Source of the DNA: Steromphala cineraria
Lineage: Eukaryota > Mollusca > Gastropoda > Trochida > Trochidae
DNA length: 64,000 nt
Assembly (NCBI GenBank): GCA_916613615.1
Contig: OU744726.1
Span: 65,550,987 to 65,614,986 of the forward strand
Direction: 5' to 3'
Part shown: piece after piece, positions 15,850-57,359 of the stretch
How positions within the stretch are numbered: the stretch's first letter is position 1
How the letters are laid out: each line of letters starts with the position of its first letter
The notes under the pieces: generated by a model
What the model was told of the DNA's origin: nothing
The model's input: the letters and a program-made list of their open reading frames with translations, nothing else
Database searches by the model: none
Translations under genes and position numbers: made by a program

Positions 15850-16674
15850 TATCTCGGCGGGGATCACCAACCTACGCAGGGACGGGTTCCTCAGTCAGTC
15901 CAACCTCCCTGTCGAGATTCGTAGTAATCTCCAGGCAGTCTCGGGGTCAGCCAACGCCCTCCTTGTCAGTACTGCTATTTATGAAGCGATCAGACTGGGT
16001 GATATCCCTGGATTTTCAGGACGCGTGCTTGCATATTCCCACCATTCGGGAACACCGCAAGTACCTCCGCTTCGTCCTGGGGGCAAAAGGGGGCGCCACT
16101 TCCAGTGGAACGTGCTCCCGTTCGGGATATCGTCCGCTCCGTGGGTTTCACCAGAGTGACCCAGCCGGTTGTCCAACTACTTCACCATCACGACGTACAG
16201 TTCCTGGACCTGGACGATGGGGTCAATTACCACCACTCTCCCGCAGTCCGCGGCTGGGGCTGAGGCCTCGTTTGGGGTTTCCCAACCCTCATGTCAGCGA
16301 GGAAGTGTGCAGACACGCATTCCCGCTGCCCCAGCGGCTCGTCCCTCTCCTAGCCTGGTGGAGGGTGCAGGCCAACGTGTTCTCAGGCGTTCCACTCAGA
16401 CCTCCCGCGGCGACTGCCCATCTCTTTGTGGTACATCCACGCAGGGTTGGGGCGCCCTCCTTGGAAGGGAACAGACGGCTGGGCTGAGGTTGTCGGCCCA
16501 GCGCACGCGCCACATCAACGAGCTGGAGATGGAAGCTATCAGGCTGGTAATCTCTCACTTGTCCGCTCTGCTGTTGGGCCAAGTGCTTCTAGTGCACTCG
16601 GACAGCTCGACAGCGGCTTGGGGGCACCAGCTGTCAGTCTATGTGTCTCCCGTCCCCGATCCCGAGTCGTGGGG
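15850..16674 (+). pseudogene. DIRS reverse transcriptase / RNase H, 5' half, broken
   Basis: Reverse transcriptase pieces in shifting frames include SLDFQDACLHIPTIREHRKY near 16005, RHFQWNVLPFGISSAPW near 16100, and a degraded catalytic LDLDDG near 16205 where YLDDG is expected. RNase H follows with INELEMEAIRL near 16520 and VHSDSSTAAW near 16590. The frame runs into the Polinton at 16675 and resumes at 31903. Several frameshifts precede the insertion point, so the element was probably already inactive. Confidence 0.85.
16669..16674. other. Left target-site duplication of the Polinton
   Basis: GTGGGG immediately precedes the terminal repeat and is repeated exactly at 31897-31902. Six bp is the known Polinton duplication size. 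Confidence 0.93.
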
Positions 16675-17122
16675 AGTAGTATAGAAGGTGGACGCAGACA
16701 GGGTGTATGCAATGTGCAATGTGCAATGTCTGAAACCGGAAATGATGTAAATAGATGGATGACGTCATAAGGCAGATATATACTGATGAGATTATGACAT
16801 CACATGTTTTGATTAAAATGTTCATAATGCAATGACTTTGCAAGACGATAAATGTGATAAAATATTACTATTATTTTATGAAGTGAATGAAACAAATGAA
16901 TTCATAGATTGTATTAATTATATCAGTGGTCATTAATCTGAAAACAAAAATATAGCACAAGATTAGAATTACATTTATGTAAAGGCTATGAAGATTTATT
17001 TAGCAGGTAAAAGGAGACTAAAGTCAATTCAAAGTATACTAGATAATGTGCACCTGTCCATTCACGTGACCCCGAGTGTGTAAACCGTACGTGACTTAGC
17101 TAAAGTGTGAGGACGAAACAAT
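16675..17122 (+). repeat. Polinton left terminal inverted repeat
   Basis: It starts AGTAGTATAGAAGGTGGACG, with the family-typical 5' AG, and includes a triple GCAATGT repeat at about 16708-16728. It pairs with 31449-31896; only a handful of differences are visible, mostly at the inner end. Confidence 0.94.
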
Positions 17123-17260
17123 GGAAGGTGTGACTTGGAAAAGCTGACAATGCCTCTTTGTGATACCTTAAAGTTATTATTAACTATTACCTATGTATAT
17201 AAATATGAGTAAATATCCATTGTTAATCCACCAATCATTCGCTAATGTTTTAAACACATT

Positions 17261-17290
17261 TATCACGTGACTGTTATATATCACGTGATA
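17261..17290 (+). promoter_or_regulatory. TATA box within paired CACGTG motifs
   Basis: TATCACGTGA, CTGTTATATA and TCACGTGATA together form a near-palindrome placing a TATATA element between two E-box-like CACGTG sites, about 100 bp before the ATG at 17377. It is a probable promoter of the leftmost Polinton gene. Confidence 0.6.
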
Positions 17291-17376
17291 AGAAGCAGTA
17301 TTCGACCCTTCATTTCTACGTCACAGCTCATTCACAGCCGAGACATCAATTGGCGCCTAACCATACACTGACAAAC

Positions 17377-17982
17377 ATGGCTAGTGATAATATGACCTTC
17401 TACACTTGGAAGTATGTACAACCCGAATCTGATCATATCAGTGAAACAACTGTTGTGGAATCCTCCCGATGGTTTCAACAAAGAGAAAGATGTGCCCAAG
17501 ATGCCGAGAAGAAGGTGCCCAATGCGGATGATACCCTCAAACGAGTCATCACAAAGAAGACTAAATCAAACTTGGGGGATAATTTGACTGTAAAAGTCAC
17601 GGAGCATGTGTCATCCTTACTGACTCTGTGTTACACCCTTGAACTCTGCAGAATGATTAAACATCTCAGTGTTGAGTTGTGCTTCGGGTGCCTTTTCGAA
17701 CAGACCGAAAGCCAGTATCATACCTGTCAGGACCTGTACAAGAGAGAGAAACTGGAGCAATATATGAAGACGGCTTTGGACGAGGTGAATGACGACCGCG
17801 TGATAGACCAATGGGCTCAACTGATTCGTGATGATCCCGACTTGCCTAACCTAGCACCCCTGACTGTGTGCCAGTATCGCTGTAAAGACTTTATAGATAA
17901 CCACTTTAAAACAGATGATTGGATAAAGAACATTGCAGATCGTGTGTTTAAAATGTTATATTTAGACAGATCATTTCGCTAG
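17377..17982 (+). CDS. Polinton protein of unknown function with Cys/His motif
   Basis: 201 residues from the first ATG; upstream in-frame triplets hold only a non-ATG start. No domain is recognised with confidence. The centre has ELCFGC, then about ten residues, then YHTC (C-x2-C...H-x-C), which could bind zinc. The N-terminal half is charged and the C-terminus hydrophobic-basic. AATAAA at 18022-18027 follows the stop, so the gene probably makes its own short transcript from the TATA element at 17274. It is the outermost plus-strand gene, next to the terminal repeat. A structural or regulatory role would be a guess. Confidence 0.75.
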   Translation: MASDNMTFYTWKYVQPESDHISETTVVESSRWFQQRERCAQDAEKKVPNADDTLKRVITKKTKSNLGDNLTVKVTEHVSSLLTLCYTLELCRMIKHLSVELCFGCLFEQTESQYHTCQDLYKREKLEQYMKTALDEVNDDRVIDQWAQLIRDDPDLPNLAPLTVCQYRCKDFIDNHFKTDDWIKNIADRVFKMLYLDRSFR

Positions 17983-18071
17983 AAATGCATGATTTATACT
18001 CGCCTTACATTATTCGTTTGCAATAAAGCATGTTTTTTCGAGATTTTATGTTTTCAGTGTTGTCCATGATA

Positions 18072-18079
18072 TATATAAG
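18072..18079 (+). promoter_or_regulatory. TATA box before the integrase cluster
   Basis: TATATAAG lies 52 bp upstream of the integrase ATG at 18131 and downstream of the previous gene's poly(A) signal. Similar boxes precede 22011 (GATATAAAG, 21945-21953) and 23260 (TATAAATA, 23156-23163). Confidence 0.6.
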
Positions 18080-18130
18080 AGGGCTGAGAGTTAGAGAGCT
18101 CTCATAGGGTGGGGTGTAAAGCATAGAAGC

Positions 18131-19234
18131 ATGTCATCTCAGACTAGCTCCGGGAAAGCACTTGAGAGTGTCTATTTTGACCCAAGGTCGGCCGGCAGTT
18201 ACTTTTCCCCTGCAAAATTTCGAGAGAATTTAAAACGACGTGACGGAGATGTCCCATCGCTTTCTAAGGTAAAAGCCGAGTTGTCTAAGCACGACGCCTA
18301 TACACTCCATAAACCTGTCAGACGTAGATTTCCACGTCTAAGGGTCATTGTCAATGCTATAGATCAGCAATGGGACATGGATTTGATGGACATGAGTCGC
18401 TATGCTAAAGCCAACGACGGGGTACGCTATATTCTCATTGCCATTGATATACTGTCTCGCTATCTATGGGTCGCCCCTTTAAAAAACAAGAAACCCGAGT
18501 CTGTGGTCGAGGGACTGAAAGCTATAATAACTCAGGGACGAAGCCCTCAATACATCAGAGTGGATAAAGGCACAGAATTTAAAGGGGCTTTTGGCAATTA
18601 TACAGAGAAACACTCTATCAAAGTATTCGTCTCGCAGAACGAAGACATTAAAGCCAATTATGCAGAGAGAGTCATACGAACTTTGAGGGGTCTTATAGCC
18701 AAGTACTTGACCCATAAGAATAGTGAGAGGTACATCGACGTGTTATCCGATTTGGTATACAACTACAACCATACCCTACATCGAAGTTTAGGCAAATGGG
18801 CCCCTGCGGAGGTGAACAAGCGAAATCAAGTTCAAGTGTGGAATCATTTATACATGAAACCATTCAAAGGAATGTCGAGAAAGGCATTTAAGTATAAAGT
18901 GGGTGACATCGTTAGAATAAGTTATTTGAGAAAACCCTTTGCCAAGGAACACAACTTACGCTGGACGGAAGAGTTATTCAAAATTGCTTCGCGGTCGAGA
19001 CAACAAGGACTACCCCTGTATAGATTGATGGACTTTCACGATGAGCTCTTAAAGGGACGTTTCTACGAACAGGAACTACAGCGTGTTGTTAAAGACCTTG
19101 ACGCTGCATGGGACATTGAGAAGGTGGTCAAGAAAAAGAAGGAAAAAGGAAAAGTCTATTATCTGGTGAGGTGGGCAGGGTGGCCTTCTAGTTTTGATTC
19201 TTGGGTGGACGAGAGCCAAGTGAAAGATAAGTGA
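18131..19234 (+). CDS. Polinton integrase, retroviral type, with chromodomain
   Basis: 367 residues. The RNase H-fold core carries the catalytic triad in its expected settings: D84 in WDMDLMDMS, D145 in YIRVDKGTEF and E179 in NYAERVIRTLR. An SH3-like region rich in YKVGDIVRIS follows. The last 44 residues form a chromodomain, with the aromatic-rich YYLVRWAGWP and DSWVDE typical of the fold. The protein inserts element DNA into chromosomes with 6-bp staggered cuts, matching the observed duplication. The chromodomain may target modified histones. The frame is fully open. The stop lies 14 bp before the next gene's ATG. Confidence 0.95.
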   Translation: MSSQTSSGKALESVYFDPRSAGSYFSPAKFRENLKRRDGDVPSLSKVKAELSKHDAYTLHKPVRRRFPRLRVIVNAIDQQWDMDLMDMSRYAKANDGVRYILIAIDILSRYLWVAPLKNKKPESVVEGLKAIITQGRSPQYIRVDKGTEFKGAFGNYTEKHSIKVFVSQNEDIKANYAERVIRTLRGLIAKYLTHKNSERYIDVLSDLVYNYNHTLHRSLGKWAPAEVNKRNQVQVWNHLYMKPFKGMSRKAFKYKVGDIVRISYLRKPFAKEHNLRWTEELFKIASRSRQQGLPLYRLMDFHDELLKGRFYEQELQRVVKDLDAAWDIEKVVKKKKEKGKVYYLVRWAGWPSSFDSWVDESQVKDK

Positions 19235-19248
19235 TTCTGTCAGTCATC

Positions 19249-19677
19249 ATGGATAAGTACATCGTGTTCAATAACCTAGACTCCAAGAAGGACTACTATG
19301 CGAGTAACACACCCTATCGATTCCGCGTGAAACTGTCTCAACGTTTAAAACTAGAAGGAGTTTGGATGGTGGCTCTATTAGAATTGAAACTGGGTAAAGT
19401 AGAGACAAAAAATATCAATGATACGACTATTGACGTGTTGTGCAGTCTGTGTGATAGCTCACACGTGGGTCAAAACTACCTTCCCTTACTGAGACGTATC
19501 GATTTGAGAGATGGGCCTAATTATTACTTTCACCAGCCTTGGTATCTCCCCGTCATAGTGAAAGACACGTCGGAAATCGAGGTGTATATAAAGTGTGCGG
19601 AAGGCACACCCCACTCATTTCTGAAAGAGTCTGTGAACGTGTCACTGCTGTTGCGACAGTATCCCTTTCTGAGTTAA
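19249..19677 (+). CDS. Polinton minor capsid protein, penton-like
   Basis: 142 residues from the first ATG. By position between integrase and major capsid gene and by its beta-rich pattern (LEGVWMVALLEL near residue 35, a C-terminal SVNVSLLLRQYP strand), it matches the single jelly-roll minor capsid protein of Polintons and adintoviruses. That protein is expected at the five-fold vertices of the particle. No catalytic motif is expected. The frame is open. Identification rests on context and pattern, so a sensitive profile or structure comparison would settle it. Confidence 0.75.
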   Translation: MDKYIVFNNLDSKKDYYASNTPYRFRVKLSQRLKLEGVWMVALLELKLGKVETKNINDTTIDVLCSLCDSSHVGQNYLPLLRRIDLRDGPNYYFHQPWYLPVIVKDTSEIEVYIKCAEGTPHSFLKESVNVSLLLRQYPFLS

Positions 19678-19695
19678 AGACATAAATAAGTGGCC

Positions 19696-20027
19696 ATGGA
19701 GAGGAGACTTTACATTCCGGATACCAAGAAGTTTATGGACTTTTTTGAACATAGAAGTAAGAAAGGAGCAAAACTGGTGCTTCGAAAGGACAGCACAATA
19801 GTCAGGACTCGAAACCAAACATCACTTTGACGTCCCCCAATCAGAACGTTGTTCAAAGGGCGGAGCTATCCCAGAAGCGAACTAAGGCTATAAAACGCAA
19901 AGCGGGGGACAAGATTGTCACTTCGAAGAAAGTACGTCGCGAGGGACAGAGCTCTACCTCCAAACGATCCTTTCTCGAGTTTAAGAATACCCCTGTCATC
20001 GACCCGAGAGATATCTGGCAAAAGTAA
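19696..20027 (+). pseudogene. Small basic protein gene between capsid genes, frame-disrupted
   Basis: An ATG at 19696 opens a 44-residue frame ending in TGA at 19828-19830. The -1 frame is open across the same region and runs on to TAA at 20025-20027, two bp before the hexon ATG. The second part has no ATG of its own near its beginning and encodes very basic sequence (KRTKAIKRKAG, SKKVRRE). The simplest reading is one Lys/Arg-rich protein of about 110 residues broken by an indel; a programmed frame change or an assembly error are alternatives. Basic proteins at this place might bind packaged DNA, but this is inference. No joined product is given. Confidence 0.6.
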
Positions 20028-20029
20028 TC

Positions 20030-21340
20030 ATGTCTATACTGAGCGAGAAAGAATTTACGGAAGCCCTCCCCAACAGCTTAGATTTATTTGAGTTACCTCC
20101 CTATCAAACGAGCATTGTACAACATTATTACGAGAATGTGAGACCTCTGTCGGTGATCACAGACTCCAGTCCCGTGGAATTTCACGTCCCCAATGGTGGG
20201 AAGGATTACATCGACCTGAGTAAGACGCGACTTCACGTTAAACTAAAAGTCACCCACGCGGACAAAACACCCTTGGTGGATAAAGAGAAAGTGGGACCGG
20301 TCAACCTCACCTTGCAAAGCTTGTGGAGTCAGGTGAGCGTCTACCTGCAGGGACAACAGGTCAGCTCCAGCAATGCGGGGTACCCCTACAAAGCGTTGAT
20401 GGAAACAGAGTTGGACTACGGGACGGACGCCAAGGGCAGTCAACTCACCAGTCAGCTCTATTACAAAGATTCGGGAGACACGGTTGACGAGTTTAACTCT
20501 GGCGATCCCCTCGGAGGCGGGAACGACGGACTCATCAACCGAGGCAGCTTTATCACCCTCAGCAAATCCCTGACCATGTCCGGACCTCTCATGGAAGACG
20601 TGTTCCGCTTCAATCGACATTTGGTCAACGGAGTGGACATCGGAGTCAAATTGTTCCGCTCCAACACGACCTTTGTCTTGATGTCCGACGAAACGGGTAA
20701 AGAGTACGCCATCGACCTGCAAGACGTCTATCTGAAAGTGTGTAAACTGAAAATCAACGACTCGCTCATCCTGGCTCAAAACGAAAGATTCAAGCATGCA
20801 AACGCCTTGTATCCATTCGAGAGGTCCATCGTCAAGATGGTATCGGTAGCCTCCTCCAGTCTGAGTTTCAACTGGGACGCCATGTTTCAAGACGAAGTCC
20901 CCAGTCGTCTAGTGGTGGGCATGGTGAGATCAGACGGGGTGAACGGATCTTACACAGTCAATCCCTTCTGTTTCGAAGGAGACATAATCAAAAGCATGGG
21001 ACTGTACCTGAACGGGACCACAGTACCTGGGAGACCGCTGGAGACGGTCGACGTGGAGGCCTACAACAGTCTGTTCGAGTGGAATAATGAATGGGGTAAA
21101 GACAAGGGTTTGAACTTGGACCGCACCGACTTTAAGATAGGACACGCTCTGTACGTCTTTAACCTGCAAGCCATCGGAGGAAACAACAGAGAAGACTATC
21201 TGAACCTGGTCAAGTCGGGAAACCTGCGTCTGGAAATTCAGTTTAGCAAGGCACTTACCCACACCTTTAACGTCATCGCTCTAGCCAAGTTCCCGGCTCT
21301 CATCGAAATTGATCAAGCCCGCAACGTGTTTCTAAAGTAA
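20030..21340 (+). CDS. Polinton major capsid protein, hexon-like double jelly roll
   Basis: 436 residues, the usual size for the group. The protein belongs to the family often annotated in invertebrates as F54H12.2-like, now recognised as the Polinton/adintovirus major capsid protein. Visible traits are an N-terminal VEFHVPNGGKDYIDLSKTRL strand pair, LWSQVSVYLQG, a long loop with GGGNDGLINRG, and a C-terminal LRLEIQFSKAL strand. Trimers of such double jelly-roll proteins would form hexagonal capsomers. The frame is intact. It starts 2 bp after the upstream small gene and ends 6 bp before the protease ATG. Confidence 0.87.
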   Translation: MSILSEKEFTEALPNSLDLFELPPYQTSIVQHYYENVRPLSVITDSSPVEFHVPNGGKDYIDLSKTRLHVKLKVTHADKTPLVDKEKVGPVNLTLQSLWSQVSVYLQGQQVSSSNAGYPYKALMETELDYGTDAKGSQLTSQLYYKDSGDTVDEFNSGDPLGGGNDGLINRGSFITLSKSLTMSGPLMEDVFRFNRHLVNGVDIGVKLFRSNTTFVLMSDETGKEYAIDLQDVYLKVCKLKINDSLILAQNERFKHANALYPFERSIVKMVSVASSSLSFNWDAMFQDEVPSRLVVGMVRSDGVNGSYTVNPFCFEGDIIKSMGLYLNGTTVPGRPLETVDVEAYNSLFEWNNEWGKDKGLNLDRTDFKIGHALYVFNLQAIGGNNREDYLNLVKSGNLRLEIQFSKALTHTFNVIALAKFPALIEIDQARNVFLK

Positions 21341-21346
21341 AAGATA

Positions 21347-21838
21347 ATGAACACACGGCAAATACAATGCGCCATCCGCAGCGACCCGAGTCTACGTAGT
21401 CGCATGACTGGCGTGTATGCAAGAGATACCTTAGTCGGCATTGCTTCACCTCCCCCTGGAAGACCCTGGGGATGCGTGGTAAACACGGACAAAGCCTCGG
21501 GCAAGGGTCAGCACTGGGTAGCCTTCTATTATGACGGGAGTGGAGTCGGCGAGTTTTTCGATAGCTATGGACAGAAACCCGGCTATTATCATAAAGAATT
21601 TGTACATTTTTTACAGAAACACTCTTGTGGATATCAATATAATAAGACTGTTTTACAACAATCTACTTCCAACGCTTGTGGTTTCTATTGTCTATTTCAT
21701 GCATTACAAAAATGTAAAAACAATGCCATTTTACGAGATATCATACAACTGTTTGGTGGTGATAAACGATGTAATGACGTCTATGTCACGCAATTTATAT
21801 GTCATTATTTCAAATATTGTTTTAAATGTGTAAGATGA
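21347..21838 (+). CDS. Adenain-like cysteine protease
   Basis: 163 residues. The catalytic set is readable: H56 in GQHWVAFYYD, D72 in FFDSYGQ, Q104/Q105 in TVLQQSTSNAC and the nucleophile C111 in ACGFYCLFH. The order His-Asp/Glu-Gln-Cys and the DSYG motif are those of the adenovirus protease / Ulp1 (C5/C48) fold, and Polintons carry it to process capsid and core proteins. It is Cys-rich at the C-terminus. It follows the hexon gene by 6 bp, and AATAAA at 21893-21898 closes the cluster. Confidence 0.93.
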   Translation: MNTRQIQCAIRSDPSLRSRMTGVYARDTLVGIASPPPGRPWGCVVNTDKASGKGQHWVAFYYDGSGVGEFFDSYGQKPGYYHKEFVHFLQKHSCGYQYNKTVLQQSTSNACGFYCLFHALQKCKNNAILRDIIQLFGGDKRCNDVYVTQFICHYFKYCFKCVR

Positions 21839-22010
21839 TTAATGGGCTTGTATCTTCTATATGTATTTTGTATATGTATACTATGATTTTGTAATAAAAT
21901 TGGGGAAAGGACTCTATTGACTTTTGTTGTCTATGGTAATGCATGATATAAAGATTGAAGTAACAAGAATACATACCTCAGTCTAGAGTGTGCCACCAGT
22001 CGAGCAAGAC

Positions 22011-22418
22011 ATGGCAAATTACGTCCTGAGACATTATGATTTCCTGATACACGTACTCTCTCAACACGATTACCAGGAAACCTTGAATGATATAAGACAT
22101 ATGACGAGTGGACAGGTGAAGGCAGTCCAAGCGGTTGTGACCCGATTATTGAATGGTCTCATCCCGGTCACACGAACACAGGATCGTGTGTATTTACAAC
22201 CAAACCCAAACAATAATTACTACTCGATTTTACGACGCATGATTCATGGAAATGCCACCCAAGCCTCCGTCAAGCGGAGTCTATTACGACACACCCAGCT
22301 GATTCGATTCATCTTTGATGCCGAGCATTTAAGACACGTGCGGGACGAGGCTAGAAATAACATCCTTCGTCAAGCTAGACGCCAACGACAGAGAAACTTG
22401 GTGGCTAGAGCTGCTTAA
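22011..22418 (+). CDS. Polinton small protein A, unknown function
   Basis: 135 residues from the first ATG, about 60 bp after a GATATAAAG box. The middle has the pattern FLIHVL...VKAVQAVVTRLLNGLIP, then a basic helical C-terminus (RQARRQRQR). The same pattern recurs in the protein encoded at 23260, so the two look like distant paralogues on either side of the ATPase gene. No known domain is recognised. The mostly helical, basic composition would suit a nucleic-acid- or virion-associated protein, but this is not shown. Confidence 0.72.
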   Translation: MANYVLRHYDFLIHVLSQHDYQETLNDIRHMTSGQVKAVQAVVTRLLNGLIPVTRTQDRVYLQPNPNNNYYSILRRMIHGNATQASVKRSLLRHTQLIRFIFDAEHLRHVRDEARNNILRQARRQRQRNLVARAA

Positions 22419-22478
22419 AACAGAGGGTCCCTTCGCTCAAGTTGTCATTCTTATCACAACCGCAAACTGGTCAATACG

Positions 22479-23150
22479 ATGGAGGGCAAGGTATCATGTT
22501 TATTAAAATGTACGACGCCGACCAACTTGGCGGTAGCCGGCTCGAGCGGTTCTGGAAAGACGAGATGGACTAAACGTCTTTTGGAGAATTCGGAATACAT
22601 TTTCGATAAATCGCCCAATCTCATTGTGTATTGCTACGGTGTATGGCAGGATATCTACGGCGAGATGCAACAGTCGATAGATCGCATTCAGTTTCACGAA
22701 GGCTTGCCCAGCGAAAGTAATCTACGCGAGTGGTCTGACCAGTCGGATAAAAACATGATTCTGGTGTTGGACGATCTCATGATGGAGGTATGTAACAGCA
22801 AACTCATGTTAAACGTGTACACCACATTAAGTCATCACCTCGGCATAACGCTGGTAAATCTACAACAGAGCATCTTCCCTCGAGGAACGTATTCTCGCAC
22901 TATCAGCGTGAATACACACCTGTACTGCCTACTCTCCAACCCAAGGTCTGCGAACGAATACAAGATTCTGGCCAGTCAGATATTTCCAGGAGAAAGCAAG
23001 TACTTTTGGGAATCATATAAAGATGCCGTGGAAGGCAGAAAATTTGGTTACCTCATCATTGACGTCTGTCCCTATAGCAACCCCGAATTTGGACGACTGA
23101 GAACGGGCATCTTTCCAGGCGAAGTGTGTACAGTTTACTTTCCTAAATGA
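22479..23150 (+). CDS. Packaging ATPase, FtsK/HerA type
   Basis: 223 residues. The Walker A motif GSSGSGKT is at residues 21-28 and Walker B MILVLDDLM at about 93-101, with DD at 98-99. TLVNLQQSIFPRG probably holds the sensor glutamine (QQS). This short ATPase matches the A32-like genome-packaging ATPases of Polintons and relatives, which move DNA into a preformed capsid. The frame is open. It lies between two small paralogous genes. The start is the first ATG, shortly before the P-loop as in relatives. Confidence 0.93.
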   Translation: MEGKVSCLLKCTTPTNLAVAGSSGSGKTRWTKRLLENSEYIFDKSPNLIVYCYGVWQDIYGEMQQSIDRIQFHEGLPSESNLREWSDQSDKNMILVLDDLMMEVCNSKLMLNVYTTLSHHLGITLVNLQQSIFPRGTYSRTISVNTHLYCLLSNPRSANEYKILASQIFPGESKYFWESYKDAVEGRKFGYLIIDVCPYSNPEFGRLRTGIFPGEVCTVYFPK

Positions 23151-23259
23151 AAATGTATAAATACAACGTCAAGGACGGGACTCGAAACAGTCTTCCTGCG
23201 GACGCGCTACGGACAAGATATATCGCTCGAGACTGCTTTGAGTAGTACATATATCTATC

Positions 23260-23769
23260 ATGAGTCAGTGCATTCGAGATAATCTGGATATACTACACGT
23301 TCTGGGAAAGTCAAAACCCAGGAGTCGAAAAGCCCTTCTGACTTATGTATTGCCATGTCAGTATAGGGCCATTGCTACACTATTATACAACATTATCATC
23401 GGTGTCATACCCTTAAGTCAAGAGGAGGAAAACAAGCTGTACCGCCACAGGAAGATCATTCGCCTATTGACAGCGAAGCGTGGCAGAAGTCATCCCAGAG
23501 TCTTACTCAAACAGGCAGGATTCAAACATAAAAATTTATTAGAGCTGCTTGTGACCTATCATTTCCTCATCCCTCCCTGTGTGCAAGCTCTAGACCGATA
23601 TTTGCAACATGACAAGGCCAATGATACTGTTGTCTCGAGAGACCTACCAACACCTGCTCCAAGCGTCTCAGAAGACGGAAGGGCAGGATGCCCTTCCCCC
23701 AGTTCAGACCCAGACTCCCCAAGTCCAGTCTCCACAGACACCGACTATGAATCATCTGAAGACATGTGA
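23260..23769 (+). CDS. Polinton small protein B, paralogue of protein A
   Basis: 169 residues. LDILHVLGKSKPRSRKALL and YRAIATLLYNIIIGVIPL resemble the core of the protein encoded at 22011, with the same spacing of an ILHVL-like segment, a short basic run, and a hydrophobic helix ending in G-x-IPL. The last 40 residues are a Ser/Pro/Asp-rich tail that overlaps the next gene's start in another frame. A TATA-like TATAAATA lies about 100 bp upstream. Function unknown; the overlap suggests the tail is under weaker constraint. Confidence 0.75.
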   Translation: MSQCIRDNLDILHVLGKSKPRSRKALLTYVLPCQYRAIATLLYNIIIGVIPLSQEEENKLYRHRKIIRLLTAKRGRSHPRVLLKQAGFKHKNLLELLVTYHFLIPPCVQALDRYLQHDKANDTVVSRDLPTPAPSVSEDGRAGCPSPSSDPDSPSPVSTDTDYESSEDM

Positions 23770-24262
23770 AGAGCAGACTAGTGTTAAGCAGGACACTTCG
23801 GATAATAGCGACATGATATCAAGTGAGCCCAATCAAACAGGAGGAGGAAATAAAACAACGATGGACCCAGCCTCACACGATGCATTAGATCAACTGTTAC
23901 AACAGGTTGGCTCGGATAAGCAAAAGGGCAAATTAGTGTCCATGTTGCAGTATCTCAACAAACAGAAACTTCTTGGCAATATCAACTGGAATGACAAGTT
24001 TGAACTCCAAGACAAGGCTGGTCATACCATAAAGGATTCTAATGTGATTGACTTTATTCGACAGTTTGTGTTACAAAGTAATGTTCGAAATCCCATTGGA
24101 TATCAGATGTTTATACGCATGGTAAAGACTCTACCACAATCAAGGCCTTTTTTCCCTCAAGTGGGAAAAGGCAAGAGAAAACGAGCAATGTATGTACAGG
24201 GTAAAGTGAAAGACGGTGTTCCCGGTGTAAAGAAGTTCAAGGCTTTGGAAAATTACTATTAA
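23609..24262 (+). CDS. Polinton protein of unknown function, overlaps preceding gene
   Basis: 217 residues from an ATG inside the previous gene, giving a 161-bp out-of-frame overlap. The first 90 residues are Gln/Thr/Pro-rich and look disordered. The C-terminal half is more ordered, with INWNDKFELQDKAGHTIKDS followed by NVIDFIRQFV, the W-x(n)-G-x-x-I-x-x-S/T-N pattern I associate with an unnamed conserved Polinton protein. It ends in a Lys-rich GKGKRKR tract. AATAAA at 24354-24359 follows. The true start could be a later ATG (23747 or 23812), which would shorten or remove the overlap. Confidence 0.72.
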   Translation: MTRPMILLSRETYQHLLQASQKTEGQDALPPVQTQTPQVQSPQTPTMNHLKTCEEQTSVKQDTSDNSDMISSEPNQTGGGNKTTMDPASHDALDQLLQQVGSDKQKGKLVSMLQYLNKQKLLGNINWNDKFELQDKAGHTIKDSNVIDFIRQFVLQSNVRNPIGYQMFIRMVKTLPQSRPFFPQVGKGKRKRAMYVQGKVKDGVPGVKKFKALENYY

Positions 24263-24834
24263 ATGTCTTGCTTATCCATTGTACCAGAAAATACTTCTTT
24301 TACATCTTTGTGTAAATTGATTTAACTGATTGATGTAGTAAACTATTTTATCAAATAAATTGTTCTCATATCATTACTATTCTGTTGATTATGTGAAAGC
24401 AGGTTGAAAGAAAGACAGACACATTCATTTCATGTTAATATATTTTATATAGACAATCAATGCATACATTACATAAAATCATATATCACAGGGTAGTCAT
24501 ACAAAAATACTGTAGGTACTTGATTCATCATGAGCCAATCTTATCAAATAATAATGTCCACATACACACACACACACATTAAAACATATATACAACACAA
24601 TACATTCAAATTCAATCAAAGTAAACATGTACACTATGTGCAAAATACAAATGTCTGGGAGACTTGATGGAACGAGCAAGGAAAGCGTGTTTAAGCATAA
24701 AGAGTTGTACTCGATGATTTCAAAATCTCTATTAAATGATTTCTGTGTCATCTGAACTGACTTCACGTGTAGAATATGGGCAGAGCTCTATATCCAAAGG
24801 AACCGTGCTAATGCCATCGTCTAAGACCCGGCGC
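24263..24834. other. Convergent intergenic region of the Polinton
   Basis: It separates the plus-strand genes from the 3' end of the polymerase gene. It holds AATAAA (24354-24359, plus) and a short (CA)n run at about 24558-24578. No gene seen. Confidence 0.6.
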
Positions 24835-27800
24835 TTACAGTAAAGGTAGCTCAACCCTCGGCGTCTGCTGATAGGTACACATGGTGTTTCCCCTCAGACG
24901 GAAGCCTCTATTCATTCCCTCGCCAGGAACACCCGTCCGCAGAACTTGTCTAAATGCAGCTAGTGGTGTTCTGAGTGTGCGTTTCGAAATGCCCTTGCTG
25001 GAAAACTTTACCTTCTTTTCGAAGCGTCCAATCATAGCTTTTGTCAAACTGGTTTTCTTCATGACAGAGGTTCGTTTACCTCTTACAGTATATCTTGCAC
25101 GGCGTAGGATACGTTGAGCACAACGTACGCTCGATGTCATGGAAGGCTTGGGCATGCGTTGAAGGGTGATCTGGGCAACTAAATAGGTTTTACTGCAGAG
25201 CCCAATCATTTCGTCTCCTTCGTACTCGAGTTTGAATAAACCTGGTGTACGCTTGTCGTGGAGTGCGTGAATGGAACAGCAATTGCGTGGAAACCATCGC
25301 ATATCATTCTCCAGTTGTTGCTCTACGCAAAGCCCCTTTAACTGGTTGTGGAATGCCACCTGTTTGTCGGGTTTAATCACTTCCGAGAGTGACGAGGCGC
25401 TCAAAGCCATGTAAGCACTGTCTGTATCCATCTCCATATACTCAAAATCACTACGATCGACGTATACGTCCATACAGTCGTAATAGTAACTGAGCATGCG
25501 CAGCTTGGCGTACTGGAGAATGAAATAGCCAAGCTGCACGGGAGTATCGAGACGCAAGAACTTTTTGCCCATCTCGACCTCGAAATAGTCCCCATCCAGA
25601 TTTGTAAGTTTTCTGAATTGCGGAATATTGACTTGGTCACTAGCCTTTGTATGACCATGTACGTAGGACACAGTTTGATGTTTTTCTTTATTGATCAAAA
25701 CCGAACCGTATGCAGAGTTGCCCGTAAGTTTAGCCGTATCCCCACGAATGGCTGCGGAAGGATCGCGGTCGGCTTCTCGTCTCGCTGAACACACATCTCG
25801 AACAAATTGATCAAAACATGCGTTCGGGGTATACTCCACGACTTGGTACACTCGATCTACCATCATTCCATGCTGCAGATACCACTGTAAAAGTGGGGTG
25901 GCGATCATCATTTGTCTAGCCTTAAGCCCACCCACAAGCATGCGGCGTGGTTTGGTGCTCAAGTCGTTCTCCCTGATGTAGTCTTGCATGTGTTCCCCGA
26001 GATCTTCGAATGGAACCTCCGCATTGCAAAACAGGGGAGTCATTTCTTGAAAGTACTCGTATGGGGAGAGCCGTGTACCATGAGGATTCTGGCCAGGAGC
26101 CCACTGTTCCGGAACGTGAATGTCCACTTCCACCATTCCGAACAGTTCCCCCGTTTCCACAGCTTTCAAAATGTCTTGTTGCGAGACCTTACCTCTCTTC
26201 TTTCGTGCGAAAGGCGGTGCACGTTGCTCGACGAATGACTTAAGGTCGTCATTTTCTTGACACTGGCGGTGGTATTCGCATTCCCACATTTCATAGAGTT
26301 GGTAACCCTGACTGCGAATATAAGCAGCTCGTGCTTCAGTGTCTCTGAGACGCTTCTCTAAAAGTTTTCGAGATTTATCTTTGTTGCGCGCATGCATAGT
26401 AAGGTGACATTCGTGTCCGTGGTAATAACAACCATTGAATTCCAGTAGAATGGTCGAGTCTGGAATCCATCCGTCCACCAAGTATGGACCGACTCGTTTT
26501 TCCCGCCCCCAATTGAGTTTATGTTTTATGTCGGCATTGAACTTTTGTTTCATCCAATCCATCCAATCGTACATGGATGTGTACCTGTCTCTGCGTTCGG
26601 GTTTGAAATCGTTCTTGGCTTGCCTGCGCACAAATGCACCTGTTGGCATGGGTTGATCTATGGCCCACAAGTATAAGGCATTCGCGTCATACCCAACAAC
26701 CTTTTTACATCGTTTAGCAGGATTGCCTCTAATCAATGTCCGTTCGGCTTTGTGGTATCTGGTGAAAATAATCGAAGGACCACCGACCACGTTAGCCTTG
26801 ACTGTGTGATAAAGGTCCTCGTTCTTCTTATCAAAGAGAGCAAAGGAGACCCCTTTTTTCTGACTCTCTCGGAACAGTTTTTGTCTGGCCACGCCTGGTA
26901 CCGACATGGTGGTCTTAAAGAGGTCAATACCGTCCTCGAAATAAAACCTTTGCATGGCTTGCACGGCCTCGACAAAAGGACCCACATCGAGATTGTTGTA
27001 CCACTCCAGGAAGTCCCGAAATGTGGACATTCCTTCCCGCCTCCAGACCTCCTCAAGATCTGCATAATTATCTTCGATAGATTTTACCCCGTCATCCAGG
27101 ACAGATTTCTGTTTGAGACTGGAATACCAAGCCTCGCCCAGCGGTGGAAGCCGAGTTTCATTCAACTTTTCTGGGCTGTCGAGGTATTCATACGGGAAAA
27201 AACCTTTCCTTTCCTCTACCCCGAAAGCTTTCAGAAATTGAGCATAGCTCGTTCCTGGAGAGAGATATTGTGTCACGTCAAGAAATTTAAAATTTTGATT
27301 ACTTTGACACAAGTAAGCATTGTTTTTCTTGACTGTGAAAGCTTGAGATTCAGCGACGTGAAGAGAGAGATGTTTTGGAAGCTTCTCTTTGACGATATTC
27401 AAGTCATACCGAGCTGAATTAAAGCCGAGTACAGGGACTTGTGAACAGTACCCCAAAAGCTTACCATAGAGTTTGTTCACATGCTTTTCCCACTTGGCCT
27501 GTGGTGTTGAAGCACTGTCTTTGTCATCCATGTCATCCATATCATCCATATCATCATACATGTCATCATCCATGTCATCATTGTCATCAGCATCACTATT
27601 CATTTTAACACTACCATCATCGTCCTTTTGCCACTTTTCTAACTCCTCAAACACCCATTCATACTTCTCTTTGGCAATCTTAGTGACTTTTTCAGCAATG
27701 ACAGAGATATATTCCATCATAGCAGATATGAGTTCATCGGAATCGGGATTGACAATGCAGTGCGGTGATGTAAACCCTGGTACATTGGAACAGATGCTTA

Positions 27801-30664
27801 CCGAAATGGGGCGATGTTCTTGTGTCCATCTCAATTTCTGCGTTCCAGTGTTGATAGATTTCAAGAAACACTCGAAATCAAACACCACAAACCATGGAAA
27901 AAATCTCTCTCCAGGCGTGACGTGCAAGTCACTCTCATCCAGCTCGTCAAACACTGTTTTTGGGGTGTGATGAAAACCCCCTGGAAATATTAATTTTGTT
28001 TGACCAGTGCATCGGCGCTGGTGTTTCTGCTGTAAATCTATGCGTTTGAAGAGTCTCTCGCACAAAGGACATTGATAGCGCTTACAATACATGTTTATAT
28101 TTGTAATGAGAGACAAGTGTTTCTCATAGAGATTTAAATTCATGTGAACATCAAACAGACCTCGAGTTTTATACACCGGTTGAGCTACCTTTTTCTCGTT
28201 GAGTCTAAATACGTTGACATTGACACGAAAACAAGCTTCGAAATCAGAGAAGTGAGCGGGAGAGAGTCCTTTATACTCTTGGTGAGTTACTTTATCTAAA
28301 GACTCGAGATGATGATGGTTTCGACAGTAGACTACCCACTTATAATATAAATCTTGAGTAGGCTTTTCTAGTGCTTCTCGAGAGGAAGGATCTTTGTGAA
28401 GTGCCAGACAGCGGAAAGCACAGAGGCGATCCTCATAGAATCGTTTTGTGCCCTTGTTACAATCTAGAGAAATAATAGCTGAATGATTTTTCACATAGTC
28501 AGGGAGTATAACCGGGGGATGACCTAAAGGAAAATTCAATCTGAAGGCATAAAACTGTACATTAGTGATCAAAACAGGTTTCCATTTTGTATTGAGACGT
28601 TGTTTTAGGAGAAATGTCATGATATCTAACCTCTGTAATCTCTTGCGCAACTTTTCAAGATCCTTCACTCCTGTGATATAAATTGGATTATTAAAAAGTG
28701 GATCTGCAGCGTAAGGTTTAAAATAGCGATATTCACCCGTTTCCACATTCCTTAGGATGACACCAAATGCCAAATTCAATCTAAAGCTAAAATCTAAGGA
28801 TTGATAAATGTCCCTAGCTTGTTCCATCAACTCATCAATTGTTAAGTTATTGGTGACAGGGAGATTGTATAGCGAAACCACGGATTGGTCCTCAGCTTGG
28901 TCCTTAGCTTGGACCCCGGGTTGAGCCACGGCTTGATCCCCAGGCTGGTTCTGAGCTAGGATAAATGCTGCATTCAGATCATAGGCCTCCTGTAGTTCAG
29001 GGTCGATCACCTCGCCACTCTCCTGGTCTTCCCATGGAGCGGGACCTTCACCCCACGGGCGCTTCACTTTCTTGGCTCCACTGCCGGACTGTGAGGGTAG
29101 CACCCGATGTCCCTTCATCACCTGATGGCGATAGAGAGACTTTTGATCTATGAATCGTCTCTTACAGGTCCGACAGGTTCGCTCCTTTGTTCCTCGATCG
29201 TCGTTGTTTGAAGTTGAGCTAGCTGTAAATATAAACTTAAATGTAATACGGATATAGATAGTAAGTTCACTGATTCAATCACTTGTTTATCGCTGAACAT
29301 ATGATAACAATTCAACATTAATTTAAATTATCTCCCAGAAGTGTAAACAAAATATATTACCTTCACTAGGACCGTGTTGCTCGCCATTAGCCGAGGAAGT
29401 AGAGGGTGCGGACTGTACGGCTGTAAGACAATGATTCATAAACATATATTCATCTTGTGAAACAGATATACCTCTAAGTAAGCGTCCTAATGATCATTTA
29501 GTTCGAGAGTTTCGACTGACATCATAACTTGATAAATCATTAATCATACATATTAAGCATCGGAAACGTTTTCAACATATATGATTACATTGTTTACAAA
29601 ATGATTTCATTATAGTAAAGCAAACTGTTGCATTAAATGTTTTAATCTAACAAACAACATTCATAGACGTTTGACTTACTGGTTTGATGGAACCGACAGT
29701 TGTGCACAGTCAACTCACGTGGAGTGGAGAATACCTCAGAGCAATCCTATACATAGAAGCAATGTTCTAATAGTAGTTGTAATAGTAAACAACCAAACGG
29801 GAATTGAATTCAAAATGCATTATAACAGTTTAAGTATATGGAATGGAATTCCTAGCAGCCTTACTCATAAAGGTGTGTTTAAATGTGTACTAATAGTCAC
29901 ATAACATAATCCCGATATAACATTTTGTGTAAATTTATTTATGATTATGAGAGTATTAAGTTACACCTTTTGTAACAGGATACTATGAAGTCATCAATCA
30001 CACACTTTAAAACAACATTCAATTTGCAAATATGTCAAAATCACTTATTCGCTCAATCTTTAGTATATAGCACATAATACATAGCTAAACCTCGTTACAT
30101 TTCTATTAACATCATGAGAAGTATTCATTCATAAATACAATACAAATACGTTGTATTTTACATATATGTGTAGATATGAAACTTTCTTGTCACAGCAGAC
30201 AAACAACATTGTTTTCACAAAACAGTATCACATGGATTATCATATGTCATTGGGTGTATTGTTTCTTATCTATTGTGTTTTGTTTAATAACATGAATACA
30301 TCATAAAATACATTTACTATTTAGTAACTATAAGTCATAAACATAATCATACTTACGTTGCAATGATATTGAGCTGTGGCGCACTTGTGCTTTTTCATAT
30401 AATGCATTCTGGTGAAGGACTTATCACACTTGTCACAGAGGAATCGTCTCCCCTCGTGAGCTGATCTCTTATGTTGATTGAGATTTGTTGGTGATGAATA
30501 AGTTCTCTCGCATTCCGGACATTTGAATGTACTGCAATCGGATAAAGAACTTGTAAGATGAAATAAACTTTTAAATATATCGTCCTTTTGCAAAAGCAAT
30601 CTTTATGTATTAGTTCTGTTGTATTGATATAAGTCTGTACTTACGGTTTTGATGGTGAATCCAT
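24835..30664 (-). CDS. Protein-primed family-B DNA polymerase with spliced zinc-finger N-terminus
   Basis: The large exon (29222-24835) holds the polymerase. The 3'-5' exonuclease shows as FDFECF (27866-27885) and NSARYD (about 27403-27420). Polymerase motif A is YDANALY (26671-26691), motif B KLTGNSAYG (near 25710) and motif C DTDS (near 25420). Between A and B is the LEFNGCYYHGHECH insert (26404-26445), a nuclease-like module of such polymerases. An acidic Asp/Met tract lies near 27520-27605 and a C2HC finger at 28012-28074. Predicted upstream exons are 30664-30645 (ATG), 30531-30357, 29734-29680 and 29420-29361. All have GT-AG borders and compatible phases, giving 1,565 residues. They add two C2H2 fingers (exon 2) and complete another across the large exon's start (CRTC...H-x5-H). 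Without splicing, the first ATG is 29118 (1,427 residues). No joined sequence is given. Confidence 0.85.
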
Positions 30665-31448
30665 TTTGAACAATTTCCGAGAGCAGAAAACTTGATGTTA
30701 ACAGCAAGAGAGCTAATGAAGGAATGAACACATATGTATGTGTGTACGTATTTCGTAAGTCACACATTCCATTTTTCGCCAGCATAGCTTGAAACATTGA
30801 CTGTTGTCACGACTTTGTTTACCCACACCTCACTCCTAGCCTGCGTCTGGCACGTCCAGAAAGGCTATGTTTATTCACAGGTCACGTCGGGTCAAGGAGG
30901 TGACCATCAGCTGACAATACACACAAGCTAAATGATTTAACAACTCCTTGTAAAATAACAAACTGATAGAATAATCTTTCTAAACCTTTTAAGATGCGAT
31001 TTAATAGTTAAAATAGTCCTGCTTACTAAACACCCTTTACCAATGTTATTCAACTCTGTAATTTATAGTCAGTAATACTTGAATATAGAAATTGCTTGAA
31101 CTATGGTGAACATTGATTGTAACAAGCTGGGGTTCAACAGAGTGTCACCTTAGCTCACAAATATGACTATGCTAAATGCTTTATCAGTTTGTTTCTAGAG
31201 AAACATGTAACAAGATATGATGTGTTGAAAGAATGTAAAACATAGTATTCCTACATCTCATACAGATCATCTATATACTTCAAGTGTACATCAGTGATAT
31301 GTTGTGTTCATTAGGTCATATATACATGGATAATCTAAAGAATGAATTAATATTTCCTCTTGTATTCAAGACGTTTTTTTTAAAATTCAGTTTTGTGAAC
31401 ATAGGTAATGGTTTATATTGAGTTTAGGGTATTCATAGGAAAGAATGT
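30665..31448. other. Polinton region upstream of the polymerase gene
   Basis: No gene seen. It should contain the promoter and 5' UTR of the minus-strand polymerase transcript. It is AT-rich, and no single TATA box could be assigned with confidence. Confidence 0.45.
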
Positions 31449-31896
31449 ATTGTTTCGTCCTCACACATTGGCTAGGTCACGTACGGTTTACACACTCGGG
31501 GTCACGTGAATGGACAGGTGCACATTATCTAGTATACTTTGAATTGACTTTAGTCTCCTTTTACCTGCTAAATAAATCTTCATAGCCTTTACATAAATGT
31601 AATTCTATTCTTGTGCTATATTTTTGTTTTCAGATTAATGACCACTGATATAATTAATACAATCTATGAATTCATTTGTTTCATTCACTTCATAAAATAA
31701 TAGTAATATTTTATCACATTTATCATCTTGCAAAGTCATTGCATTATGAACATTTTAATCAAAACATGTGATGTCATAATCTCATCAGTATATATCTGCC
31801 TTATGACGTCATCCATCTATTTACATCATTTCCGGTTTCAGACATTGCACATTGCACATTGCATACACCCTGTCTGCGTCCACCTTCTATACTACT
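31449..31896 (-). repeat. Polinton right terminal inverted repeat
   Basis: Inverted copy of 16675-17122, same length (448 bp), ending CCACCTTCTATACTACT. A few differences from the left copy are visible near 31470 and 31610. Confidence 0.94.
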
Positions 31897-31902
31897 GTGG
31901 GG
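31897..31902. other. Right target-site duplication of the Polinton
   Basis: GTGGGG, identical to 16669-16674. The DIRS sequence resumes directly afterwards in the same region of its RNase H gene. Confidence 0.93.
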
Positions 31903-37639: not shown

Positions 37640-38360
37640 TTAGATTTCGTGTCAAAAGATTTTGAAATACTATTGAACGATAATTAATAATTTTATGTCA
37701 GTTTTAGAATTATTCATTTGTCAATTTGACAAATCGATATAGTTCAATCATGCAGGCTTTAAACACCAGATCAATTTCGTAGGTTAACGAACTTTGATTG
37801 GTTACTTTAGCAAAAACTTCTTGGGATTAAAAGCCTACACTCGCTTAAAACATTGTCTGGGTAGAAACGTCTCGCCACAGCTTCTTTCTTTTTTAACAAT
37901 GAAATAAATCTTTTCCCAAACATAATGAATATTTATTTTCATTTTCGGTTTTGATGTGCACTTATTTCCCGAAAAGGTCTGCGCGTCAAACAATGTACAA
38001 GCTAAATATGGGGAAATATTAAGTTAAAAATACAAAATAATTTTGTTGAGTACATTAACGATGCATTCTTTATATTAGATGCCTACACCAACTGAAAAGA
38101 TATTATGATCTCATTTTAATGAGATTGAGAATAATTATTTTGTCAATTCGATAAATCGATATAGTCACTACATGCATACATGCTTGCTTTAAACACCATC
38201 AATCTTGTAGGTTAACAAAGTTTGGTTGGGTTCTTTCAAAAACATCATTGGGATTAAACCAAACACTCACTTGGAATATTGTCTTAATAGAAACACGTCT
38301 AACCAAAACGACTTCCTCTATGAACAATGAAATCAATTTGTCCCCAAACACACCTTTAAT
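37640..38360. repeat. Diverged direct repeats upstream of the segmental duplication
   Basis: About 37735-37925 and 38150-38360 share AATCGATATAGT, CTTTAAACACCA, TTGGGATTAAA, and an AACGTCTCGCCACAG-like block before a CAATGAAAT(C/A)AAT block. Further copies of the last block are near 36065 and 52960. Confidence 0.7.
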
Positions 38361-39745
38361 CGAGTTGGCAACAAGTTCTTTCAATACATACATCGACTTA
38401 GTGTGAATCAATGTGAAATAAGAAACTTAGGACAAAGAAACCTTAAAAGAAATTCCCTGGACGGAATTGCAAAGTTGATTACTTAGGTTACAAACAAAGT
38501 ATCAGCTTCCTACCATTTTCAGTGATCTTTTACAATGAAGTCATATCGAATAGGGGGTGATCAGTTGACTAATGGAAATAATTGACAAGTGTAGGGCTTA
38601 ACACAACGACTGGTAACGTCGTGTCTGGTGCAGTTAGGTGCAGTTAAGTCATTGTGGTGGGAAATAACTTAATACGGATTGATTTAGCGAGGTGAAATAC
38701 GAAAATGTCAATATTGATACCATTGACATTTTCTCATCCGAAAGGAGCATCGGTGTATATGGCCAAAAAGGCGTTTATTTAGCTTTTATGCCATTTTCAT
38801 TGTATTTGTCTTTTTGTTCTGAGTTTGCGACTTTAAAGGTTATTAAAAGGTCTTACTAGTGATATTGAGCAAATTGTAACGTTATCAGAATAAACAAATC
38901 TTACCTATACTACTAAATTATGATTTTATCATTCCATATCATTATTTTTACAATCATATCTCCTTCTTTGTTATCATGCAACTTTTGCAGCTTAACAAAT
39001 GGGAGTGCTTAACTTTTTTCCACCTGTTTAGATCTATTGCATGGTAAACAATTCACAAATTATTCATTGTGTACCTTTTTTTATATATGTAAATGAAAAG
39101 ACGTTTTATGTGAACGCTAAGAAAAATTTACAAAAACGATTTGAAACCATAAATCACGGATAAAAAGTTCATTTTAAATCTTTGATTAAAAAAAGCCTAA
39201 ACAATGTGCTACTGTGCCTTAAAATTAAGATCTACAGTAGTTTTTGGGAGTAAATTTTTTTTTAGATTATTCCCATTATGATCATTTTAATTTTCAACTG
39301 TTTTTGTATAGATCACATGCAGAACTGTAGCACTATTTAATTTTTTTAAAAAAATAAACTACTTATAAAAATCTAAATCATATTTAATTACGAGTTGATT
39401 AATTAACTTCAACTGAATTCCAAAGTTGTGTAAGTAAAAAGTGTGTCACTCATCTATTGGTTCAGTCATTCCGAATAAAAAATGTTTTGTAAAAATGTCT
39501 TCATAACAATTTGCAGTTTTTCATCAGATAGCAATAAGTCATAACCCCAGACAACCATTCAAAGGGCAATGTAATTTTGTTTCCTCATTTAGGTTTTGGA
39601 ATAAGAAAGGAAATCGTTAACCTTTAAAGCTGCCGATCTATTATTACACTTCTGATAGATGATTCAGTATTTATTATCTTAATCGAAACATTGCAAGAAA
39701 TTCGGAACATCGAAACATTGAAAGAAGTGACAATAGTTGTTCTTG

Positions 39746-40912: not shown

Positions 40913-41009
40913 TCTATCTCTAACACATTCAAAATTAAGTGGGAAATTATGATATAAATATATACACATAGTGGACATCTTTAATTTCGTTACAACCAAA
41001 ATTATCCGA

Positions 41010-57355: not shown

Positions 57356-57359
57356 AAGC

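What the first reader, a model, noticed from the sequence alone, without database searches (positions are those of the whole stretch)
24835..30664. Polinton DNA polymerase appears to be spliced, with zinc fingers added at its N-terminus
The polymerase frame on the minus strand extends upstream of its first ATG into half a C2H2 finger that starts at a clean splice acceptor (29223-29224). Four further exon candidates (29361-29420, 29680-29734, 30357-30531, 30645-30664) have GT-AG borders, and every junction keeps phase (1, 1, 0 and 2 going upstream), ending at an ATG. Exon 2 holds two C2H2 fingers. Polinton polymerase genes are usually taken as intronless, so a spliced zinc-finger and protein-primed polymerase fusion would be unusual. 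The fingers might bind the terminal repeats or host sites; that part is inference.
Basis: partly seen in the sequence, partly recalled or inferred. Interest (0 to 1): 0.9.

Follow-up and report, generated by a model that had tools for sequence, protein, structure and literature searches.

The report
Spliced zinc-finger polymerase of a Polinton
A virus-like Polinton element in what looks like an abalone genome carries a spliced gene that puts zinc fingers in front of its protein-primed DNA polymerase, and in the sibling copies compared the fingers tend to change in step with a short repeated motif near the element's ends, as if each replication enzyme recognised its own element.

Summary
The finding holds with one border corrected, and it leads further. 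The window carries a 15.2-kb Polinton (TIRs 443/448, duplication GTGGGG). Its minus-strand polymerase gene has finger exons upstream of a 4.4-kb main exon. Haliotis rufescens proteins match exons 2, 3 and 5. In the same genome, 14 of 14 sequences showing finger exons (window plus 13 copies) keep the exon 2 and 3 borders; exon 1 is found in 13. Exon 3 starts at 29746, not 29734, completing a third finger. Fingers precede the polymerase body in 69 of 75 relatives with enough N-terminus; a second family in this genome has them without introns. Next come a TP-like domain, an OTU fold, exonuclease and polymerase. Six TIR types each have their own direct repeat between nt 34 and 55. Its left half goes with finger 2, its right half with finger 1. 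Two copies alike over much of 3.2 kb differ in finger 1 and in the repeat, though not only there. A prediction noted beforehand was met exactly in one copy, two easier ones were met, and one was met in part. Most likely the fingers bring the priming protein to its own origin. Splicing, binding and cleavage are untested.

The parts
16669..16674 (.). target-site duplication GTGGGG, left copy (right copy 31897-31902)
16675..17122 (+). left terminal inverted repeat of the Polinton (starts AGTAGTAT)
   Evidence: 443/448 identical to the right arm
31449..31896 (-). right terminal inverted repeat
16708..16729 (+). direct repeat TGCAATG x3.1, nt 34-55 from the left end
31843..31863 (-). the same repeat at the right end; the 14-mer of two units (up to 1 mismatch) occurs in the window only in the two TIRs
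30645..30664 (-). exon 1, start codon, MDSPSK.., ends in phase 2
   Evidence: like exon found in 12 of 13 other copies
30357..30531 (-). exon 2: finger 1 (30521-30456), finger 2 (30437-30381, atypical C2HC), first Cys of finger 3; finger coordinates counted by hand
29680..29746 (-). exon 3 (corrected start): rest of finger 3
29361..29420 (-). exon 4: Ser/Thr-rich linker, 60 nt, symmetric
   Evidence: similar Ser/Thr-rich candidates in some copies
24835..29222 (-). exon 5: finger 4, TP-like domain, OTU fold, internal finger, exonuclease, polymerase with endonuclease-like insert; frame broken near the C-terminal end relative to P0002
29107..29175 (-). finger 4 (C16, C19, H32 in 30 of 30 rows of A1)
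28501..28923 (-). D1 / terminal-protein-like domain; candidate priming Thr211 at 28588-28590
   Evidence: model pLDDT 88; residue counts; identity as TP follows PMC11071308
28090..28500 (-). OTU cysteine protease fold; Cys267 (28420-28422) and His368 (28117-28119)
28009..28071 (-). internal C2HC-type finger between OTU and exonuclease
   Evidence: a like pattern in 98 of 99 relatives
26254..26445 (-). Vsr-like endonuclease insert
   Evidence: phrog_13076 E 4.1e-5; weak PDB matches E 0.9
18131..19234 (+). rve integrase with chromodomain of the same element

Best explanation
The locus is a multi-exon Polinton replication gene encoding zinc fingers 1-3, a Ser/Thr linker, finger 4, a terminal-protein-like domain, an OTU-type protease, exonuclease and protein-primed DNA polymerase. 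Shown by comparison: the exon structure, the fingers, and an association of fingers 1-2 with a lineage-specific direct repeat 34-55 nt from the element ends. Inferred: finger 2 reads the left half and finger 1 the right half of that repeat, in the usual antiparallel C2H2 manner (recalled). The replicase thereby finds the two ends of its own element family and places its priming residue at the terminus. After priming, the protease may free the polymerase and leave a zinc-finger terminal protein on each 5' end. Introns around the finger exon may help recognition cassettes to be exchanged between elements. Estimates: gene structure 0.95; fingers 1-2 read the TIR repeat 0.8; role in origin choice for replication rather than only transcription or integration 0.6; fingers stay on the terminal protein 0.45.
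For: Gene: tblastn blocks. Exon 2 and 3 borders and phases in 14 of 14 sequences with these exons, exon 1 in 13. Window copy against L003: 0 gaps in the 322 nt of exons 1-4, 30 gap events in the introns. Fingers, TP-like and OTU folds. Repeat: in 6 TIR types (10 TIRs) the best direct repeat lies between nt 34 and 55; shuffles reach its score in 0 to 27 of 1000. Modularity (contacts at -1, 2, 3, 6): finger 2 REDK goes with CCG (L034, L038, L047, L040, L035, L011), SQNK with ATT (L037, L042, L039), RHYK and RSYK with TGC (window, L032); finger 1 RDNQ with [AC]AGGGA (L034, L042, L035), RDNR with GAGGGA (L039), TSNR with GAT (L038, L047, L011), QYNA with CAATCA (L037). L034 against L038: 46 of 64 fifty-base steps at 98-100%, but 63-68% at TIR nt 1-100, and 20 nonsynonymous to 5 synonymous changes in exon 2. 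Predictions noted before reading: L039 met exactly (ATTGAGGGA twice), L035 and L011 met, L040 left half plus 2 of 3 bases.
Confidence: 0.7

Rival explanations
1. The fingers read the TIR repeat, but for gene regulation or for integration, not for replication: the TIRs also hold promoter-like sites, and fingers fused to the polymerase could control the element's own genes.
For: TIRs of the window's family carry TGACGTCA and, in several lineages, ATGCAAAT inside the repeat, motifs recalled as CRE and POU sites; separate zinc-finger regulator genes are reported in some adintoviruses (PMC11071296, passages).
Against: The fingers are on the replicase itself, in front of the TP-like domain, and in the window the repeat sits at the same distance from both ends.
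Confidence: 0.2
2. The fingers serve nuclear import, chromatin tethering or RNA binding, and the finger-repeat association is a by-product of shared ancestry and recombination of element pieces.
For: Few lineages; L034 and L038 differ in further patches; the code test was mixed; a distant relative has a SAP domain at the N-terminus (P0113).
Against: Half-by-half modularity, constant position, nonsynonymous excess in exon 2, and the exact prior prediction for L039.
Confidence: 0.12
3. The gaps between finger pieces are insertions in a decaying copy that look like introns, as Genewise reports for degraded Mavericks.
For: PMC8097293 (passages) describes such false introns; the window copy is frameshifted near its C-terminus.
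Against: Same borders and phases of exons 2 and 3 in 14 of 14 sequences; no gap in exons 1-4 against L003 but 30 gap events in the introns.
Confidence: 0.03
4. Exons 1-3 belong to a separate short zinc-finger gene, and the polymerase starts elsewhere.
For: Exon 2 read on runs to a stop at 30321; zinc-finger genes apart from PolB are reported in some adintoviruses (PMC11071296, passages).
Against: P0001, P0002 and P0024 hold fingers and DNA_pol_B_2 in one protein above curated cut-offs; the second family in this genome has fingers and polymerase in one frame.
Confidence: 0.05

Closest known systems
Polinton/Maverick pPolB (TP-vOTU-Exo-Pol; PMC11071308: abstract, passages, sections 6 and 7)
   Same: TP-like domain, OTU fold with conserved Cys and His, exonuclease and polymerase in one protein; endonuclease-type insert
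   Different: four zinc fingers in front of the TP-like domain, spread over five exons; a word search of that paper's main text gave 0 hits for zinc and C2H2; Ser or Tyr is the proposed priming residue there, mostly Thr here
Vertebrate Mavericks (PMC8097293, passages)
   Same: TIRs, 6-bp duplication, integrase, polymerase
   Different: intact vertebrate copies reported intronless; here introns are conserved among copies. The paper also mentions short N-terminal stretches set off by long 'introns' as possible false positives
Adintoviruses (PMC11071296 and PMC8363768, passages)
   Same: OTU-bearing PolB, rve integrase with chromodomain; the best viral fold match is a 'C2H2-type domain-containing protein' of Drosophila-associated adintovirus 2
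   Different: no finger-PolB fusion in the passages seen; zinc and C2H2 0 hits in PMC8363768; PMC11071296 speaks of separate Ziftr genes
Adenovirus origin (recalled)
   Same: protein-primed replication from TIRs with an auxiliary site a few tens of bases from the end
   Different: there host factors (NFI, Oct-1) bind the auxiliary site; here the replicase's own fingers are proposed to
Rep-iteron systems of plasmids and geminiviruses (recalled)
   Same: initiator and lineage-specific origin repeats change together
   Different: C2H2 fingers and protein priming instead of a Rep DNA-binding domain

Membership tests
Polinton/Maverick | terminal inverted repeats of hundreds of bp | tested here: met
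   443/448
Polinton/Maverick | 6-bp target-site duplication | tested here: met
   GTGGGG on both sides
Polinton/Maverick | retroviral-type (rve) integrase | tested here: met
   PF00665 33.6 bits, cut-off 32.6; chromodomain 32.3, cut-off 25.1
Polinton/Maverick | protein-primed family B polymerase | tested here: met
   no Pfam polymerase hit on the window protein itself; 73% and 67% identical to P0001 and P0002, which pass DNA_pol_B_2
Polinton/Maverick | packaging ATPase and adenain-type protease | tested here: inconclusive
   Pox_A32 E 0.0018 and Peptidase_C5 E 0.012, both under cut-off
Polinton/Maverick | double jelly-roll capsid protein | tested here: inconclusive
   ORF 20030-21340, no relevant Pfam hit; no fold run
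eukaryotic pPolB with TP and vOTU | OTU-fold domain with catalytic Cys and His | tested here: met
eukaryotic pPolB with TP and vOTU | D1 domain with TP / Y-family little-finger fold | tested here: inconclusive
eukaryotic pPolB with TP and vOTU | proteolytic release of TP | not testable with these tools
   needs biochemistry
adintovirus (definition in PMC11071296) | hexon recognisable by BLASTp to adintovirus hexons | not tested
   no hexon comparison run
C2H2 zinc finger | C-x2-C-x12-H-x3-5-H/C with hydrophobic core | tested here: met
   finger 1 above Pfam cut-off; finger 4 only weak in Pfam (E 0.017 for zf-C2H2_4) but its ligands are conserved; finger 3 read by eye across the exon 2/3 junction; finger 2 atypical
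sequence-specific DNA-binding fingers | binding to the predicted site | not testable with these tools
   covariation only

The most novel reading that the evidence does not exclude
A self-addressing replicon. Each Polinton lineage of this kind in one animal genome carries its own zinc-finger origin-recognition module on the protein that primes its DNA and its own matching repeat at both ends. Introns flanking the finger exon let recognition modules be exchanged, together with the matching end sequence, so that co-resident families diverge in replication specificity.
Probability: 0.6. Interest if true: 0.92.

Novelty: new variant of a known kind. Interest (0 to 1): 0.85.

Why it matters
How Polintons and adintoviruses choose their own ends for protein-primed replication is, as far as I know, not settled. 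A natural series of finger variants and end repeats in one genome makes the question testable by simple binding assays. The locus also shows conserved introns in a gene described as intronless in vertebrate Mavericks, and a finger layer in front of the TP-vOTU-polymerase chain. I did not find that layer described in the papers listed, of which I opened eight, in passages or sections only.

Tried and rejected
Chance splice signals: considered, because GTAAGT counts alone are weak; rejected on homologues and sibling copies. Clean loss of intron 4 in copy L006/L035 was my first reading; one search shows exon 4 runs into exon 5 out of frame there, so it looks like a deletion, and I dropped the claim. 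Recent capture of one host zinc-finger gene: a search with the P0002 fingers (688 candidates, proteins of like length only) found P0002, P0001 and one spalt-like host protein at E 2.5e-6, so no donor is seen. Exon shuffling from a host finger gene seems unlikely because intron 2 lies inside finger 3. Searches of IMG/VR, prokaryote genomes, phages and plasmids found no relative. TIRs of the second family show no direct repeat at the same place (shuffles 896 to 940 of 1000) but, by eye, an inverted one, so the repeat rule is shown only for the window's family. No test came from L009 (fingers not found in L061) and L048 (no finger hit); L033, L036 and L041 repeat L034. No TIR of L035 was found in L057; its right TIR was found through. 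L032's TIR was taken from its right end by motif and is less sure.
Full report
What is in the window. The element runs from 16675 to 31896 (15,222 bp): TIR arms match at 443 of 448 positions, the ends read AGTAGTAT, and both flanks carry GTGGGG. It has an integrase with chromodomain, ATPase-like and protease-like ORFs below cut-off and a minus-strand polymerase. The closest named relatives of the polymerase are two Haliotis rufescens proteins, P0001 (73%) and P0002 (67%), so I take the source to be an abalone or close kin; the genome held has 1.27 Gb in 281 contigs.

Gene structure. Exons have 40-58% GC; introns have 25-29% GC and a stop in every frame. The N-terminal parts of P0001 and P0002 align to exon 2 (E 1.4e-18, 7e-17), exon 3 (7e-4, 0.005) and exon 5 (4e-29, 1e-30) in order. 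Exon 4 gives only E 2, with P0002, in the right frame. Exon 1 is too short for BLAST and was compared by eye (MDSP in P0002, an inner MDSS in P0001). P0001, P0002 and P0024 each hold zf-C2H2 and DNA_pol_B_2 above curated cut-offs in one protein (six proteins scanned). Whether P0001 and P0002 come from spliced genes was not visible.

Sibling copies. The genome search scored 32 of 831 candidates and listed 66 matches, pieces included. I fetched upstream pieces of 18 copies. Of these 18 and the window, 14 showed the finger exons (window, L031-L042, L047), 4 belong to a second family (L043-L046) and 1 had no finger hit (L048). In the 14, exon 2 and exon 3 borders were found in all, exon 3 is 67 nt with donor GTAAGT in all, the exon 2 donor is GTAAGT in 13 (GTATGT in L037), and exon 1 was found in 13 (not L037) (borders were sought with set motifs, and two decayed copies have stops inside exons 2 or 3). 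Several are near-identical (window with L031; L033, L034, L036, L041), leaving about ten lineages. Window against L003: no gap in exons 1-4 and 30 gap events in the introns; identity of exons 1-5 0.85, 0.77, 0.90, 0.97, 0.94 and of introns 0.80, 0.69, 0.82, 0.87. In the second family the finger hits lie in the same frame as the following polymerase piece, within open frames of 1585-1702 aa (frames compared by hand for L043-L046), so introns differ between families of one genome.

Fingers across relatives. Of 124 relatives found, 120 were listed; 27 lack the start of the body; of the other 93, 75 have at least 60 residues in front of it, and 69 of these 75 carry at least one strict C2H2 finger there (mean 2.43 against 0.0019 in shuffles). 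In 73 proteins with enough N-terminus, 65 have fingers in the extension and 0 in a C-terminal stretch of the same length. A more distant search found 149 proteins and listed 120, of which 117 were new; 47 of these have enough N-terminus and 36 of the 47 a finger. Three relatives (P0009, P0027, P0031) carry fingers and the polymerase body on contigs with only 559, 346 and 150 spare bases, less than the 1,120 nt of introns here; these may be intronless DNA or transcripts.

End repeats. In the window each TIR has TGCAATG three times from nt 34 on, and the two-unit word occurs nowhere else in the window. In the other TIRs of this family the best direct repeat lies at about the same place with a different sequence: AACCG[CA]AGGG twice (L033, L034, L036, L041), ACCGGAT twice (L038, L047), ATTCAATCA twice (L037), ATTAAGGGA twice (L042); shuffles reach these scores in 0 to 27 of 1000. 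L032 has TTGCAGCC/TTGCATCC/TTGCAGCC, by eye.

Covariation. Writing finger contacts at -1, 2, 3, 6 (peptides): finger 2 REDK goes with CCG; SQNK with ATT; RHYK and RSYK with TGC. Finger 1 RDNQ goes with [AC]AGGGA, TSNR with GAT, QYNA with CAATCA, STNQ with AAT, SKNQ with A[GT]C. The halves recombine: L034 and L042 share finger 1 contacts and the right half but not finger 2 or the left half; L034 and L038 share finger 2 and the left half but not finger 1 or the right half. L034 and L038 are otherwise much alike (46 of 64 fifty-base steps at 98% or more), yet differ at TIR nt 1-100, in intron 1 with exon 2 (5 synonymous, 20 nonsynonymous), at two indels, and in the intron 3-exon 4-intron 4 stretch. 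L031 differs from the window at finger 2 position 3 with the same repeat.

Predictions. Before reading the left ends I noted ATT+GAGGGA for L039, because its finger 1 has Arg instead of Gln at position 6; ACCG+GAGG for L040; the L034 repeat for L035; and an NNG-AAN repeat for L032. The stretches for the first three were fetched. L039 reads ATTGAGGGACATTGAGGGA. L040 reads AACCGGATTCGAACCGGATC: left half right, right half GAT instead of GAG. For L035 no TIR was found there. A second note predicted ACCGGAT for L011 and repeated L035; both were met at the right ends, but these TIRs are close to ones already seen. A formal test with the recalled code was mixed: high own scores for L034, L038 and L047, not for the window, L037 or L042; 9 of 720 pairings score as high (8 of 720 on both strands). 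By hand, finger 1 fits the code at 16 of 18 specified contacts over seven helices and finger 2 at 2 of 7 over five.

Reading. The simplest account is that fingers 1 and 2 read the repeat, finger 1 on the inner (3') half, as C2H2 fingers do (recalled). Because the fingers precede the TP-like domain, and vOTU is proposed to release TP from the polymerase (PMC11071308, passages), the fingers would end up on the protein that stays on the DNA ends. The last two steps are inference.

Literature. I saw passages of PMC3671162, PMC11071296, PMC12721341, PMC8363768, PMC12220804, PMC2646287 and PMC8097293, and passages plus sections 6 and 7 of PMC11071308; in these I met no finger-polymerase fusion. Other papers I saw as listings only. 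Starrett 2021 is not held; Kapitonov and Jurka 2006 I did not look up and know only as cited.

Noticed in passing
TIRs of L034, L038, L047, L037, L042, about nt 60-110 from the end: Inside the repeat several TIRs hold ATGCAAAT (changed in the L034 group) and TGACGTCA (changed in L042), which look like POU-octamer and CRE sites; the window keeps TGACGTCA.
   Followed up: partly
L049-L051 (second family TIRs): The intronless family has an inverted repeat (AGTACATTATA..TATAATGTACT) near the ends where the window's family has direct repeats (by eye).
   Followed up: no
G000:C39:22452955-22459338, C36:36906481-36912434 and others: Pairs of L034-type TIRs only 6-7 kb apart, probably non-autonomous derivatives of the family.
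   Followed up: no
window 26254-26445: Vsr-like endonuclease segment inside the polymerase.
   Followed up: partly
P0113: A distant relative carries a SAP domain at the N-terminus where others carry fingers.
   Followed up: no
several relatives: Several relatives list PF08719 (precomputed; NADAR by recall), an extra domain on the polymerase protein.
   Followed up: no
window 38263-46713 and 52933-60474: A run of 89-99% direct repeats spaced about 14-15 kb apart, a large duplication beside the element.
   Followed up: no
window 41359-42405: ORF that looks like a reverse transcriptase, outside the element (by eye).
   Followed up: no
window 40753-40913: Palindrome, 90% over 79-nt arms with a 3-nt loop.
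   Followed up: no
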